A stretch of 64,000 bases of DNA. Origin: Eubacterium sp. GTDB taxonomy: Bacteria > Bacillota > Clostridia > Lachnospirales > Lachnospiraceae. The stretch covers positions 248,001 through 312,000 of the forward strand of contig JAFVGA010000006.1 of the NCBI GenBank assembly GCA_017475235.1, written 5' to 3'. A program made the position numbers and the translations under genes. Shown here piece by piece: positions 17,975-62,102 of this stretch. The notes beneath the pieces are model-generated. The model was given only the letters and a program-made list of their open reading frames with translations. It did no database searches and was not told the DNA's origin. Within the stretch, counting starts at the first letter, position 1. Each line of letters opens with the position of its first letter.

Positions 17975-18004
17975 AAAAAAGAATCTCGAAAGAGATTCTT
18001 TTTT
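17975..18004. terminator. Bidirectional terminator between punA and rnpB
   Basis: AAAAAAGAATCTC, loop GAAA, GAGATTCTTTTTT: a perfect stem with A- and T-runs on either side, immediately after the punA stop and beyond the 3' end of rnpB. Confidence 0.9.
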
Positions 18005-18008
18005 ATAT

Positions 18009-18335
18009 GAGTAAAGCTGTAAGCCGGGTTCTGTCTAGGATGATCATCTATCTAGGCGCATAGTCACCTATACGCTCAAGCAACCTACCCGGAATCTAGC
18101 GGGCAACTATATGATTCCTGCTCGGTCTTGCTTCGGATGGGGTTTACACTGCCACTGATGTTACCATCAGCGCGGTAGGCTCTTACCCTGCCATTTCACC
18201 CTTACCACAAAGTGGCGGTATACTTTCTGTTGCACTTTCCTGAGAGTCACCTCTACCAGCCGTTAACTGGCATCCTGCCCTGCGAAGCCCGGACTTTCCT
18301 CGTGTGAAACACACGCGACCATCTACTTTACTCGA
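18009..18335 (-). ncRNA. rnpB: RNase P RNA, bacterial type
   Basis: Catalytic RNA of RNase P, which trims tRNA 5' leaders. On the minus strand the conserved 5' core GAGGAAAGTCCGGGCT is near 18285-18300, followed by GCAGGGCAGG, the GGTAAGGGTGAAA region, GTAAACCCCATCCG and the 3' core ACAGAACCCGGCTTA. GAGTAAAG near the 5' end pairs with CTTTACTC at the 3' end to form P1, which sets the limits within a few bases. The conserved strand pairings look like type A, but I have not fully folded it. Confidence 0.95.
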
Positions 18336-23704: not shown

Positions 23705-24182
23705 AATCTACTTTTACAAAGTTGTAATACTTGCCTTTTGTAGTACCAAAAAACCCAGTAATATCACAACTAATTCCATGCTTACCTGTAGAACGCACCA
23801 CATAAGTCGTTATACCAGTATTTACTTTAATTGTGAATTCTGCATCAGGTTTTTTATCAATATCAGTCTTTCCATTATTTTTCTTTTCTACTACCAAACC
23901 ACTTGTTGTTTTAAATGATGTGGAATGATGCGCTTTTATAGAACCATTATGAAATTCTTCATATGCTTCCTCTGGGCTACTAATTGAACTGTCGCTCAAA
24001 GTAGCTGCTTGACCTTCTTCATAAAAACAAACATACGAACATTCTCCATCAGCATCTTTAAGCGTTGACTGATATACTCCATCGCATCTAAGTTTTGTTC
24101 CTTCAATATACTCTTCACCACATCCAGATAGTATTAATGTGGACATTATTACGAGTATCATTAATATGCTAATCTTTTTCAT
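23703..24182 (-). CDS. Lipoprotein of unknown function
   Basis: A 159-residue predicted lipoprotein. The ATG at 24182 has AAGGAG upstream and starts MKKISILMILVIMST, ending in the lipobox LSGC with the modified cysteine at 21. The rest is polar and beta-rich with no recognised domain; it contains a stretch KKNNGKTDIDKKPDAEF and ends GTTKGKYYNFVKVD. An open frame 20 codons upstream reads into the GC-rich element and is not coding. It is the first gene downstream of that element and has no visible partners. Confidence 0.75.
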   Translation of the reverse strand: MKKISILMILVIMSTLILSGCGEEYIEGTKLRCDGVYQSTLKDADGECSYVCFYEEGQAATLSDSSISSPEEAYEEFHNGSIKAHHSTSFKTTSGLVVEKKNNGKTDIDKKPDAEFTIKVNTGITTYVVRSTGKHGISCDITGFFGTTKGKYYNFVKVD

Positions 24183-24205
24183 AAAATAACTCCTTAAATA
24201 AAAAA

Positions 24206-24220
24206 AGTGCAGGAGATGGG
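24206..24220 (-). repeat. Direct repeat copy of the tRNA-Leu 3' end
   Basis: Fifteen bases (AGTGCAGGAGATGGG on the plus strand) identical to 24358-24372, which cover the acceptor 3' strand, discriminator base and edge of the T-stem of tRNA-Leu. The copies are offset by 152 bases and differ immediately outside the 15 bases. Confidence 0.9.
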
Positions 24221-24310
24221 GCGCGGTGCCCCAGTGGGGCACTCTGCGAAGCAGAAGCGCCGACCGAGCCGGAGGCGAGACCTTGAACCGGGTTCAAGGA
24301 TCGCTCCGGC
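24220..24310 (-). repeat. GC-rich structured element (three-way junction plus long hairpin)
   Basis: A GC-rich island in AT-rich surroundings. GGCGC (24220-24224) pairs with GCGCC (24257-24261) and encloses two perfect hairpins: GTGCCCC/GGGGCAC (24226-24242) and TCTGC-GAA-GCAGA (24243-24255), giving a cloverleaf-like three-way junction. Next comes a long hairpin with outer arms GCCGGAG/CTCCGGC (24268-24274, 24304-24310) and inner arms CCTTGAAC/GTTCAAGG. There is no ORF. It may be an interspersed repeat, a tiny mobile element or a structured RNA. Confidence 0.7.
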
Positions 24311-24314
24311 TTGT

Positions 24315-24353
24315 AAAAAGAAAGTGAGTACCAAAGGTACTCGTTTTCTTTTT
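24315..24353 (-). terminator. Terminator after tRNA-Leu
   Basis: Minus-strand hairpin with core GAGTACC/GGTACTC and flanking AAAAGAAA/TTTCTTTT arms, ending in TTTCTTTTT, 6 bases beyond the tRNA 3' end. Confidence 0.75.
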
Positions 24354-24357
24354 AACT

Positions 24358-24372
24358 AGTGCAGGAGATGGG
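24358..24372 (-). repeat. Direct repeat copy within the tRNA-Leu 3' end
   Basis: The second copy of the 15-base repeat, here forming the genuine 3' end of the tRNA gene (24360-24372) plus two flanking bases. Confidence 0.9.
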
Positions 24373-24444
24373 ACTTGAACCCACACGAGCATAGCGCTCA
24401 CAAGATCCTTAATCTTGCTCGTCTGCCAATTCCCACACTCCTGC
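24360..24444 (-). tRNA. tRNA-Leu (anticodon AAG)
   Basis: An 85-base class II tRNA. Acceptor arms GCAGGAG and CTCCTGC with discriminator A; D-arm GGGAATTGGCAGAC; anticodon stem CAAGA/TCTTG with loop TTAAGGA, placing AAG at positions 34-36; a long variable arm (TGAGCGCTATGCTCG); T-arm with GGGTTCAAGTCCC. The CCA end is not encoded. An A at position 34 is unusual in bacteria outside tRNA-Arg(ACG) but is known for tRNA-Leu in some Firmicutes. Confidence 0.96.
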
Positions 24445-24523: not shown

Positions 24524-25105
24524 TTATTGTTGAGCAGCTGCTGTTGTGCTCTCTTGTTCTAGTTCGTTCAATGTCTTGTGAAACTCGGAACAAACTCCTC
24601 CATCCACTAGATAAACATTGTTATCACCTTTGAACATTACGTAGTATGCTGATTGATTATATGGATTTGATGCACCAACAAAAATATCTTCTTCCTTATT
24701 TCCAAGGTTAACAAATATCTCTTGTGTTTCTGGTTTTACGCCACTCTTAATCTTTGTGAATCCATACTGAGCAATGTCTTTTGGATTCTTAATGATTGTG
24801 TCTGCTTTGATATCTTTCAAAGATGCAATCATTGTTCCAACATCTGTCTGTTTAAGTTTCATCTTTGGGTCATCGACATTTGTCCATACATCGCCAGTCT
24901 TACCAATCATATATGTCTTACCATTATATGTATAAGCCACACCAGTAACTTTACTAGTATCAATCTTTTTAACAGTTGTGGTCTTTGCCGCTTCCTCTTT
25001 TTTCTCTTTATCTGCAAAGTATTGTTTGCCGACAAAGTAACCAGCGACGCAAAGTCCAAGAACTACCACTAGAACTATTAATGTAATAACTTGACTCTTC
25101 TTCAT
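24524..25105 (-). CDS. DUF4340 membrane-anchored protein of a Gld-type ABC system
   Basis: A 193-residue protein with one N-terminal transmembrane segment (VITLIVLVVVLGLCVAGYF) and an extracytoplasmic DUF4340-type domain rich in short beta strands (VAYTYNGKTYMIG, GDVWTNVDDPKMKLKQ). The start is MKKSQ at 25105, preceded by AAGGAG; its ATG overlaps the upstream stop by one base (TAATG). DUF4340 proteins regularly follow GldG-like genes and are thought to act with them at the membrane. A 28-codon upstream extension of the frame lies inside the neighbouring gene and is rejected. Confidence 0.85.
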   Translation of the reverse strand: MKKSQVITLIVLVVVLGLCVAGYFVGKQYFADKEKKEEAAKTTTVKKIDTSKVTGVAYTYNGKTYMIGKTGDVWTNVDDPKMKLKQTDVGTMIASLKDIKADTIIKNPKDIAQYGFTKIKSGVKPETQEIFVNLGNKEEDIFVGASNPYNQSAYYVMFKGDNNVYLVDGGVCSEFHKTLNELEQESTTAAAQQ

Positions 25106-27342
25106 TATTTCTTTCTCCTTATAGCCCATCTGATAATACCAAATGCAAGGAAGCCAACTGGAAGTACAATCACGAAGATGATTAAGCAAATTCTCATCGC
25201 CTTAACTGAAACTGTTAATGGAGAAACTTGTAAACTCTTCTTAGCTACTGTTACTGTTTCAACGTCTGTATCAATGTACTCATCTAATGCATTACTTAAT
25301 ACTTCTGTATTTGCATTTGAAGCGATTGAATCAATACTGTCTGATAATGAGTATACTGATGAATAAACTAGCATCTCAGCTTGCTTGCTATCAGCCTTAT
25401 CAGTGCCTACAGATGAAGCCTCTGTAGCTGCTACATTTTTCTCAACAGAAAGAACAAGATCAAATGGTCCTGCTACATCTCCCTTTTCCTTAGTACTCTT
25501 CTTAGCATGGTTAGGGTCTGTCTTCAGAACTGATTTACTAGATGATTTTGCAAGTTCTGTTATTGTGATTTCTTCGTTGTTCTTGTCTTTCTTTGTCAAA
25601 CCAATACTGTATGGTGAAAGCATTTCTCCTGAAAGGTCCGTGGCAAAGCCTTCTGTTCCCTTTGCAATTGCGAACAATGGTCCACCTGAGCCATCCATCT
25701 GCATTGGCATATAACAATTCTCATCATTCTCAGCAATAATTCCACTTTGAACTTTAATGTTGTATGCCTCTAGAATTGAATAGAAGTTTGGCTTCTTAAC
25801 TTGGAAAGAATTAGCTGCTTCTAATCCAATCACAACTTTTCCGCCTTCTTCCAAATACTTTTTAACCATATTGGCCTCAGTCTTTGTGTAATCTTTCTGA
25901 GGTCCCAAAATCAAGAGAACTGCACACTTATCTGTGTTTAATTCTTCTTGAGCTTTCTTTGTGTTTAGGTTGATAGTTTTGATTTCACCATTGTGCTTTT
26001 TGATGACATCTGTCATGTTTTCAATTGTACCAAGTGATTTTTCATCAGCTGTCTCTTTGTGTCCTTCTACTTGGTAAACAGTGTATAGCTCATCAGACTG
26101 AACATATGTAATTGCTCCATCAAGCTGTCCCTCAGCATCGAAAGCTGTAGGTTGAGACTGTTGTCCATACATAGCTGCCGTCTGATCCATCTCAAACATA
26201 TCATTATAGTCAATAACTTTTGACTTTTTATTGTTCTTGTTAACAACAATCAAACTTCCCTCTGTTGGGCTTTGATCTGTATATTCTTTATAGAAATTAG
26301 GATTTTGTTTAGTATCCTTGTACTCAACTTTGATATGACTTGAATTTGTTTCAAATCTATCAAGTGTTTTCAAGATGTAGTCTTTATAAACATCTTTCTT
26401 CATCGCGCCCTTCGAAGACATAACATAAACATCTATGTCTTTGTCGAGCTTTTTAAGCATCTTAACAGTTTTATCTGAGATTGAGTAAACCTTTTCAGAT
26501 GTTGTATCAACTGTAGCTGCTGGTACATTTTTTGTAACTACAGTAGCAAGCAAGTTAACAAATACAACTAAAACTAATACTACTGCGATTGTAACTGTAC
26601 TAAATACACTTGTTCCGATAGTAGCCTTTGACGCAGACCATCTACGCTTCTGAACTGACTGACATGTTAGGAACAAGAATAAAACGATAATCGATACATA
26701 ATAAACAATGTTAGCCAATGTAATCTGTCCTGCCATGATGTCGTTTAGAGGTCCCATTGTGTAGAACGCGTTCAATATATCTGTAAGTAGATTTCCGTCT
26801 TGAGAAATCATTCCTGTGATTGTTCCCATAAAGAATCCAAGGAACATAATTACAATACCTATAATTGCTGCAATGATTTGCATTTCTGTGATTGATGAAA
26901 TAAATACACCAATTGCAATCAATGCTGCACCGTATAGGAAGAATCCTAGTATTGTCACATATGCAAGTTTAAATGAAACTGTACCAAACATTGAAAGAAT
27001 CAATGGGTAAGAACATATGATTAATACTGGAATCGCAAATATTGTTAGTAATGCTAGGTATTTGCCCATCACTACTTTGAACAATGAAACAGGTGAAGTC
27101 AAAATCAACTGATCTGTCTTTTGACGTCTCTCATCAGCCATAACTTTCATTGTTAGCACTGGAACTAAAAGTGCAAGTCCCATTGCGCCGTAGAAAATTG
27201 GTGGCTCCATGTTTGGATATCCTTGCATTAAGTTATATAGTACAAAGAATATTCCGGAAATGAGTAATGTTGCTGCAATAAAGATGCAACCAATTACTGA
27301 TGAAAAATATGATTTTAATTCTCTCTTATAAATCGCTTTCAT
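25105..27342 (-). CDS. Fused GldF-GldG-type ABC permease/auxiliary protein
   Basis: A 745-residue fusion. Residues 1-240 are an ABC-2 permease with six membrane segments (MKAIYKRELKSYFSS start), like GldF. A seventh helix near 255-280 leads into a large extracytoplasmic GldG/ABC_transp_aux domain (VYSISDKTVKMLKKL, LLILGPQKDYTKTE) and a C-terminal helix (IVLPVGFLAFGIIRW). The ATG at 27342 is used because an upstream in-frame GTG is only 3 bases from GGAGG. In Bacteroidetes these proteins belong to gliding; in Firmicutes the role is unknown, possibly envelope polysaccharide or lipoprotein export. Confidence 0.88.
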   Translation of the reverse strand: MKAIYKRELKSYFSSVIGCIFIAATLLISGIFFVLYNLMQGYPNMEPPIFYGAMGLALLVPVLTMKVMADERRQKTDQLILTSPVSLFKVVMGKYLALLTIFAIPVLIICSYPLILSMFGTVSFKLAYVTILGFFLYGAALIAIGVFISSITEMQIIAAIIGIVIMFLGFFMGTITGMISQDGNLLTDILNAFYTMGPLNDIMAGQITLANIVYYVSIIVLFLFLTCQSVQKRRWSASKATIGTSVFSTVTIAVVLVLVVFVNLLATVVTKNVPAATVDTTSEKVYSISDKTVKMLKKLDKDIDVYVMSSKGAMKKDVYKDYILKTLDRFETNSSHIKVEYKDTKQNPNFYKEYTDQSPTEGSLIVVNKNNKKSKVIDYNDMFEMDQTAAMYGQQSQPTAFDAEGQLDGAITYVQSDELYTVYQVEGHKETADEKSLGTIENMTDVIKKHNGEIKTINLNTKKAQEELNTDKCAVLLILGPQKDYTKTEANMVKKYLEEGGKVVIGLEAANSFQVKKPNFYSILEAYNIKVQSGIIAENDENCYMPMQMDGSGGPLFAIAKGTEGFATDLSGEMLSPYSIGLTKKDKNNEEITITELAKSSSKSVLKTDPNHAKKSTKEKGDVAGPFDLVLSVEKNVAATEASSVGTDKADSKQAEMLVYSSVYSLSDSIDSIASNANTEVLSNALDEYIDTDVETVTVAKKSLQVSPLTVSVKAMRICLIIFVIVLPVGFLAFGIIRWAIRRKK

Positions 27343-61724: not shown

Positions 61725-61758
61725 AAAAAAGCACTCCTAATAAAAGAAGTGCTTTTTT
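61725..61758 (-). terminator. Terminator of tmRNA
   Basis: AAAAAGCACT and AGTGCTTTTT arms with a 12-base loop on the minus strand, ending in TTTTTTG, just beyond the tmRNA 3' end. Confidence 0.85.
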
Positions 61759-61760
61759 AG

Positions 61761-62102
61761 TGGACTAGGTGGGAGTCGAACCCACGTCCAAAAATCCTTC
61801 CGCCGTGCTTCTACGAGTGTAGTCTATCGTTAAAATTCCCCATCTCAAACGGAGATAGACACCCAAGTGAAATGAGTAGCTTCTAAATACGCCCAAATAC
61901 TTTGAAGCGAAAGTATTTGTCGTTTCCTACAGAACATAAGATCTGAATAAAATGTGTAGGTGCATTAAACTCAGAACGCTACGTTAAATTACGCAGCAAA
62001 TGCTAATTTTTTATCAGCGTTTAATTTAAAATTGGTATTTAACGCATCCCATACGACTCGCTTCCCCAGTTTCCGAATCCCTGTCGAAACCAGTACTAGC
62101 CC
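61761..62102 (-). ncRNA. ssrA: tmRNA
   Basis: Rescues stalled ribosomes. The 342-base RNA has 5' GGGCTAG pairing with 3' CTAGTCC (one G-U), the conserved GTTTCGACAGGGATTCGG near the 5' end and the T-arm GTGGGTTCGACTCCCAC at the 3' end; CCA is not encoded. The reading frame read back from the TAA gives a tag peptide ALNTNFKLNADKKLAFAA if the GCG alanine is the resume codon; only the ...LAFAA end is certain. Pseudoknot arms include AAATACTTTC/GAAAGTATTT. Confidence 0.95.

What the first reader, a model, noticed from the sequence alone, without database searches (positions are those of the whole stretch)
24206..24372. GC-rich structured element flanked by a 15-bp duplication of the tRNA-Leu 3' end
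Two identical 15-base copies of the tRNA-Leu 3' end sit 152 bases apart. Between them lies a GC-rich stretch that can fold into a three-way junction (two perfect hairpins inside a GGCGC/GCGCC stem) followed by a long hairpin whose tip contains a T-arm-like GGTTCAAG. There is no ORF and no integrase. This could be a minimal integrated element using the tRNA end as attachment site, a REP- or MITE-like family, a product of faulty tRNA-gene duplication, or a structured RNA cotranscribed with tRNA-Leu. The pairings are seen directly; the interpretation is inferred.
Basis: partly seen in the sequence, partly recalled or inferred. Interest (0 to 1): 0.75.

Follow-up and report, generated by a model that had tools for sequence, protein, structure and literature searches.

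The report
Tiny hairpin element duplicating tRNA end
Behind a leucine tRNA gene sits a 152-base piece of inserted DNA, one of a widespread, apparently undescribed family of tiny hairpin-forming mobile elements in gut Clostridia that favour the ends of tRNA genes and leave a second copy of the tRNA end behind.

Summary
In detail: two identical 15-base copies of the tRNA-Leu(AAG) 3' end, 152 bases apart, enclose a three-way junction, a T-arm-tipped hairpin and a terminator. It is an insertion. In two congeners the orthologous tRNA runs straight into the same lipoprotein gene, with no second copy; two more have an unoccupied tRNA. The conserved part is a hairpin core, mostly 52-79 nt. A covariance model finds it in 95 of 388 good family genomes and in 16 genomes outside the family in a class sample of 393. 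Of 90 distinct cores not chosen for tRNAs, 35 lie within 300 nt of a tRNA, 33 of these behind its 3' end, 25 of the 33 with a copied tRNA end. Cores also interrupt tRNA genes that have intact copies elsewhere and, in frame, a phage gene whose homologues lack exactly those 21 codons. So it is a hairpin-type mobile element with a T-arm preference. Stems covary almost without G-U pairs, suggesting DNA rather than RNA. The enzyme is unknown; Y1 transposases do not co-occur. New variant of known kinds.

The parts
24359..24444 (-). tRNA-Leu (anticodon AAG), intact
   Evidence: ARAGORN; Rfam RF00005 38.9 bits
24358..24372 (-). proximal copy of the 15-base tRNA 3' end
   Evidence: sequence; pattern search
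24316..24355 (-). terminator hairpin found only with the unit; absent from the empty sites L086 and L089
   Evidence: terminator scan stem 24326-24342; empty sites
24267..24313 (.). P5: long hairpin tipped CCTTGAACC/GGTTCAAGG (24281-24299); its arm overlaps the 3' end of the core
   Evidence: fold; hairpin survey over units
24220..24282 (+). conserved core (model R1 match, 63 nt): P1 GGCGC/GCGCC, P2, P3, then GACCGA-hairpin-GAGA; orientation opposite to the tRNA
   Evidence: R1 85.8 bits at G000:C1:272220-272282; covariation
24206..24220 (-). displaced copy of the tRNA 3' end, followed by the original T-run and the lipoprotein gene
24206..24357 (.). the inserted 152-bp unit as a whole, counting one copy of the repeat
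   Evidence: comparison with empty orthologous loci

Best explanation
The 152-bp unit is a non-autonomous integrated mini-element. Its conserved part is a palindromic core (63 nt here; outer stem enclosing one or two hairpins, then GACCGA-hairpin-GAGA) that moves as DNA and prefers the stem/loop border of tRNA T-arms, on either strand. In spare tRNA genes the core simply interrupts the gene. At tRNA genes that stay in use, such as tRNA-Leu(AAG) here, it sits (in the loci examined) in a unit that also carries a copy of the tRNA 3' end and a terminator, so the tRNA stays whole while the old 3' end is pushed downstream with its old flank. Shown: empty and filled alleles, the displaced end keeping the native flank, a narrow spacing, tandem arrays, independent core mobility, and palindromes kept by paired changes. 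Inferred: that folded single-stranded DNA is what the enzyme reads, that the unit arrives as one piece, and that a recombinase encoded elsewhere acts in trans.
For: Empty sites: tRNA-Leu in L086 and L089, with L087 and L088 also unoccupied; tRNA-Gly in L225 against filled L223 and L224. Family. tRNA bias: 35 of 90 cores within 300 nt of a tRNA, 33 of 35 on the 3' side, 25 of 33 with at least 10 nt of the tRNA end, 0 of 99 shuffled controls. The second end begins 111-166 nt behind the tRNA in 37 of 43 units. In a set of 39 tRNA-Gly/Leu genes not chosen for cores, both orphan 3' ends found came with a core motif. Independent mobility: exact 63-nt insertion in a phage gene, 2 filled and 3 empty. 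Interrupted tRNA-Lys, -His and -Tyr (identified by eye) while intact copies exist elsewhere. DNA-type palindromes: 281 two-sided against 6 one-sided changes, 9 G-U among 1102 paired cells, against 135 of 1116 in tRNA T-stems and 69 of 1585 in acceptor stems. T-loop hairpins beside the core in 10 of 23 opposite-orientation units against 3 of 55 cores away from tRNAs (A3 only).
Against: No enzyme was found; Y1 transposases occur in 12 of 20 core-positive and 12 of 20 core-negative genomes. The displaced end matches the local tRNA at many isoacceptors, which a travelling unit explains less easily than a local duplication. In 10 of 43 units the distal flank resembles the proximal terminator, as a tandem duplication would give. 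55 of 90 cores in the same set have no tRNA within 300 nt, and in the class set only 3 of 26 have one, none with a copied end, so the tRNA habit is not general. No excised circle or movement has been observed. G-U scarcity is suggestive only: acceptor stems also have few.
Confidence: 0.6

Rival explanations
1. Local duplication first: slippage or unequal recombination copies the tRNA 3' half (T-loop to terminator) behind the intact gene, and the mobile core then hits this dispensable T-arm copy. The 152-bp unit as such never travels.
For: The displaced end matches the adjacent tRNA at Leu, Gly, Ser, Arg, Lys, Pro, Met and Trp loci. Distal and proximal flanks are alike in 10 of 43 units. L017 keeps more than the 3' end of a tRNA-Lys copy. 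The core moves alone elsewhere.
Against: Empty alleles show neither the second end nor the new terminator. Both orphan ends in the sample not chosen for cores carried a core motif (only 2). Narrow spacing. The T-loop hairpin extends into the core in the window and several relatives (by eye), so it formed with or after the core.
Confidence: 0.27
2. Deletion remnant of a prophage or integrative element: attL and attR of an island whose inside has been lost, the core being an old integrase arm site.
For: Cargo-bearing versions at tRNA-Gly: about 4.9 kb in G317 and about 2.7 kb in G294. An integrase-bearing element sits in the tRNA-Gly T-arm next to the second copy in this genome.
Against: The second end begins 111-166 nt behind the tRNA in 37 of 43 units at several tRNA types; random deletions would not be so uniform. 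The core also sits alone in a phage gene and away from tRNAs. Nine cargo proteins scanned from four loci include no integrase; other cargo ORFs were not scanned.
Confidence: 0.08
3. A structured RNA (regulator or tRNA mimic) made from the tRNA transcript.
For: Very stable fold and strong covariation.
Against: A terminator separates it from the tRNA. The core is opposite to the tRNA in 23 and the same sense in 10 of 33 downstream cores. It occurs inside tRNA genes and a phage gene. G-U pairs are rare. No Rfam family reaches its gathering score except the tRNA.
Confidence: 0.05

Closest known systems
Rickettsia palindromic elements (RPE)
   Same: Short palindromic repeats dispersed in genomes and inserted in frame inside protein genes, as in L112 and L115; described in PMC10969869 (passages seen).
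   Different: RPEs are about 150 bp by that paper. This core is mostly 52-79 nt, in Clostridia, with a bias to tRNA ends and a copied tRNA 3' end. No sequence comparison was made.
REP sequences and REPINs with RAYT (Y1) transposases
   Same: Dispersed, hairpin-forming copies, up to 13 per genome.
   Different: Three-way junction; insertion at tRNA T-arms; Y1_Tnp genes do not follow the core. The RAYT/GTAG features are recalled and were not tested.
E. coli tyrT 178-bp repeats (rtT RNA), recalled, not seen in any call
   Same: Recalled: tandem units behind a tRNA gene, each containing a piece of the tRNA 3' end, like the arrays in L012, L016 and L018.
   Different: As recalled, one locus in enterobacteria; here a conserved structured core at many tRNA types in Clostridia. 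No sequence comparison was made; one literature search listed no paper on it.
tRNA-integrating genomic islands / IMEs
   Same: Direct repeat of the tRNA 3' end; the displaced end keeps the native flank; the tRNA stays whole.
   Different: About 150 bp, no integrase, no genes in most copies seen.
Integron gene-cassette arrays
   Same: Units in series, each ended by a folded site; one unit carries a nucleotidyltransferase/HEPN pair.
   Different: No integron integrase searched for; attC consensus not tested; cargo seen in few loci.

Membership tests
Palindromic MITE/REP/RPE-like mobile repeat | multiple dispersed copies per genome | tested here: met
   2 in this genome; up to 10 in family genomes, up to 13 in the class sample; many carriers have only 1
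Palindromic MITE/REP/RPE-like mobile repeat | precise insertion shown by empty homologues | tested here: met
   63 nt in a phage gene, 2 filled, 3 empty
REP with RAYT transposase | Y1 transposase present where the repeat is | tested here: not met
   Pfam Y1_Tnp in 12 of 20 core-positive and 12 of 20 core-negative genomes; none in the two genomes with 13 and 11 copies
MITE of a DNA transposon | terminal inverted repeats and target-site duplication | tested here: not met
   no duplication at the phage-gene junctions, one base there unresolved; ends are not inverted repeats of each other by inspection
tRNA-integrated element | direct repeat of the tRNA 3' end flanking the element, with an empty allele | tested here: met
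tRNA-integrated element (autonomous) | own integrase | tested here: not met
   no room in the 152-bp unit; none among nine cargo proteins scanned from four loci, other ORFs not scanned
Integron cassette | attC-type site and IntI | not tested
   no IntI search was made; only a general likeness was noted
Known Rfam RNA | match at gathering score | tested here: not met
   only the tRNA in this stretch; five other matches with E up to 1 lie far below gathering
tRNA intron | interrupted gene is the only copy | tested here: not met
   G749 has intact His(gtg), Tyr(gta) and Lys(ttt) elsewhere; the part of G473 fetched has intact Ser(gct) and Lys(ttt). G115 was not checked.

The most novel reading that the evidence does not exclude
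tRNA genes of gut Clostridia serve as landing sites for a cassette system analogous to integrons: units (mostly empty, some carrying a toxin-antitoxin-like pair or several genes) end in a folded DNA site plus a copy of the tRNA 3' end, and an as yet unidentified structure-reading recombinase adds and shuffles them at T-arms of many isoacceptors without harming the tRNA.
Probability: 0.13. Interest if true: 0.9.

Novelty: new variant of a known kind. Interest (0 to 1): 0.6.

Why it matters
It documents a widespread, apparently undescribed mobile hairpin family in Lachnospiraceae and other Clostridia that exploits tRNA T-arms. It gives a concrete handle on how tRNA genes come to carry duplicated 3' ends and tandem units, and it can be tested by looking for excised circles or fresh insertions. 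In this genome the insertion also places a terminator between tRNA-Leu and a lipoprotein gene. If the cassette reading holds, tRNA genes would be platforms for gene capture by an unknown recombinase.

Tried and rejected
Intron: cores interrupt genes that I read by eye as tRNA-Lys, -His and -Tyr in L276 and tRNA-Ser and a Lys-like gene in L147. Intact copies of His, Tyr and Lys(ttt) exist in G749, and of Ser(gct) and Lys(ttt) in the fetched part of G473, so splicing is not required; rejected. G115 (L167) was not checked.

Y1/IS200 transposase: a truncated IS200-like protein (label recalled, from reading the sequence; never confirmed by Pfam, as one search failed) lies beside one unit (L096). 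Only that place had it among the loci held then, and the genome comparison gave 12 of 20 against 12 of 20; rejected as a necessary partner.

Guide RNA (bridge RNA, omega RNA, CAST homing): set aside because flanks occur in both senses relative to the tRNA; no such gene was searched for.

Viral route: a 24-mer gave 0 viral contigs. A looser pattern gave 8, of which only L112 matched the model at E up to 0.05. One scaffold deposited as phage (MT836217) carries the core 80 nt from a tRNA-Leu. Plasmid collection: no match.

Literature: the listings showed no paper that I recognised as describing this family. They cover only the held open-access library, and I read passages of two papers only.

Weak points: one search used 7-base core motifs in loci chosen for cores, so only one search is used as unselected; and one search also used short motifs, and L249, one of its two orphan ends, is in a genome (G009) where the model found nothing although BLAST did. 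Set A2 came partly from a query that contained the tRNA end and T-loop hairpin, so tRNA and hairpin statistics are given for A3. Alignments A2, A3 and A5 were fitted to the model. Models R2 and R3 were not built; IntI and other recombinase families were not searched.

Full report
Observation. The window holds AGTGCAGGAGATGGG twice, at 24206-24220 and 24358-24372; the second is the 3' end of tRNA-Leu(AAG), 24359-24444 minus. Its 13-base heart occurs nowhere else in the window even with one mismatch. Between the copies lie, in + order, a three-way junction, a long hairpin whose tip is CCTTGAACC/GGTTCAAGG, and a third hairpin that is terminator-like on the tRNA strand. The fold is far better than chance (z = -7.2). 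At gathering score Rfam sees only the tRNA; five other matches with E up to 1 lie far below their gathering scores.

Insertion. The neighbouring gene (24524-25108 minus) was used to fetch orthologous loci; 10 of 23 genomes of the genus, this one included, had a match. In L086 and L089 the tRNA-Leu runs straight into a T-run and the same lipoprotein gene, with no second tRNA end and no terminator hairpin; L087 and L088 also have a tRNA-Leu without the unit, though other sequence follows. In the window the same T-run and lipoprotein gene follow the displaced copy. So the displaced end keeps the native flank, and the intact tRNA is followed by new sequence, as for tRNA-integrated elements. L084 also has the unit, but there tRNA and unit together are inverted relative to the gene; L085 has no tRNA there; L090-L092 are more distant and were not used. 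The second copy in this genome lies behind a tRNA-Gly end, and its locus too has an empty allele in a congener (L225) and a filled one (L224).

Family and structure. A covariance model of 19 cores finds the core in 16 of 60 relatives, 96 of 396 family genomes (95 of 388 that are at least 90% complete and at most 5% contaminated; this genome is included in all three counts of matches) and 23 of 393 genomes drawn from the class, 16 of these outside the family. I infer the family to be Lachnospiraceae from named records (L052, L055). Matched cores are 52-79 nt long in 91 of 92 rows of A3. On 85 distinct rows aligned to the model, 96.1% of cells pair and 332 cells carry changes on both sides; slid controls give 15-75. 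That alignment was fitted to the structure; the first one, aligned by MAFFT, gave 98.7% and 56. The small stem P4 is weaker (83.5% paired). In P1-P3 there are 9 G-U among 1102 paired cells and 6 one-sided against 281 two-sided changes. tRNA stems of the same loci give 135 of 1116 (T-stem) and 69 of 1585 (acceptor). This suggests perfect palindromes kept at DNA level, but is not proof.

Link to tRNAs. In a set fetched by score and not for tRNAs (A3; one viral match left out, repeats merged), 35 of 90 distinct cores have a tRNA within 300 nt, 33 of those downstream of its 3' end, and 25 of the 33 carry at least 10 nt of the tRNA end; 0 of 99 shuffled tails did. The other 55 of 90 have no tRNA that near. 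In the class set it is 3 of 26, none with a copied end, so the habit is mainly one of the family. Isoacceptors with a copied end include Leu, Gly, Arg, Met, Pro, Lys, Ser and Trp. In 37 of 43 units the displaced end starts 111-166 nt after the tRNA; in 10 of 43 its flank resembles the proximal terminator beyond the 99% level of mismatched pairs. Tandem arrays of whole units occur (L012, L016, L018). Among 39 tRNA-Gly/Leu genes taken without regard to cores (two more dropped for short flanks; ends belonging to a neighbouring full tRNA set aside), only 2 had an orphan second end within 600 nt, and both had a core motif.

Rule of insertion. Flanks read like a T-arm opened at the border of stem and loop: GATGGG|core|(C)CTTGAACC when the core is opposite to the tRNA, GTGG|core|(T)CAAGTCCCAT when it is in the same sense. 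In the A3 set 10 of 23 opposite-sense units have the T-loop sequence in a new hairpin with its inverted copy, against 3 of 55 cores away from tRNAs; with A2 added, which is biased towards this feature, 23 of 50 against 7 of 100. In several, by eye, this hairpin extends into the core, and arms that have drifted are still complementary (L150, L182).

Mobility of the core alone. In L112 (IMG/VR) and L115 the core lies in frame in a phage gene. Three homologues (PV036450, PV036426, PV036412) lack exactly 21 codons there, and no target duplication is visible. In L276 three genes that I read as tRNA-Lys, -His and -Tyr are interrupted, in L147 a tRNA-Ser (this core by eye only) and a Lys-like gene. 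L276's genome (G749) has intact His, Tyr and Lys(ttt) genes elsewhere, so the interrupted genes are spare.

Cargo. In G153 a second unit behind tRNA-Arg spans 1061 bases and carries a Polbeta-type nucleotidyltransferase and a HEPN protein. In G317 about 4.9 kb lies between tRNA-Gly and the core, with HTH, AAA and two phosphoesterase genes and no integrase among the five proteins scanned. In G294 about 2.7 kb lies between them, but there a first, broken unit also precedes the cargo. These could be cassettes, or larger elements that landed in or beside a unit.

Mechanism. I favour a mobile DNA hairpin with a taste for T-arms, present at tRNAs in use as a unit with a spare tRNA 3' end and a terminator. 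Steps shown: insertion, precise core boundaries in one gene, spare end, arrays. Steps inferred: folding of one strand as the substrate, a recombinase in trans, arrival as one piece. The strongest rival is duplication of the tRNA end first and core insertion second; it explains the matching of the spare end to each local tRNA more simply, while the empty alleles, the narrow spacing and the lack of core-less orphan ends in a small sample favour one piece. No enzyme was identified; Y1 transposases are as frequent without the core as with it.

Known kinds. It works like RPE-type palindromic elements (PMC10969869, passages) and, at tRNAs, like integrated islands reduced to their ends. It fails the tests for Y1-linked REPs and for autonomous islands. 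The human-microbiome structured-RNA survey (PMC8040213; passages and section 8 seen) reports 250 palindromic candidates; whether one is this core could not be checked without its tables.

Noticed in passing
L112:5954-6019 and L115:1501-1566: The core lies in frame in a phage gene, adding 21 residues that three homologous phage proteins lack.
   Followed up: yes
L140:1129-2244 (G153:C18): Two cores 1061 bases apart behind tRNA-Arg(acg), enclosing a nucleotidyltransferase/HEPN gene pair.
   Followed up: partly
L093:19463 to L094:4458 (G317:C1): About 4.9 kb with genes (HTH, AAA, two phosphoesterases) between tRNA-Gly and a core; GAGTCA-type direct repeats near both ends resemble integrase arm sites (by eye).
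   Followed up: partly
L276:1491-2291 (G749), L147:741-1831 (G473), L167:1487-1605 (G115): Cores inside otherwise recognisable tRNA genes (read by eye as Lys, His, Tyr, Ser and one unassigned); neighbouring tRNA genes of the clusters are intact.
   Followed up: partly
L102:10880-12148 (own genome, C18): A Pfam Phage_integrase gene beside a tRNA-Gly 3' end next to the second copy of the unit, with FtsK-like and Rep-like ORFs behind it (the last two by eye).
   Followed up: partly
L084:2100-2350 (G314:C10): tRNA-Leu and its unit are inverted together relative to the neighbouring gene.
   Followed up: no
window 24182-24358: The insertion places a terminator between tRNA-Leu and a small lipoprotein gene that in two empty relatives follows the tRNA directly, so it may change that gene's expression.
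   Followed up: no
L096:10440-13170 (G294:C31): Two copies of P5, the first followed by a broken core, enclose about 2.5 kb with a protein that looks secreted and a truncated IS200-like transposase (both labels by eye; Pfam had no match for the first).
   Followed up: partly
window 18004-18334 and 61758-62102: RNase P class A RNA and tmRNA genes, ordinary.
   Followed up: no
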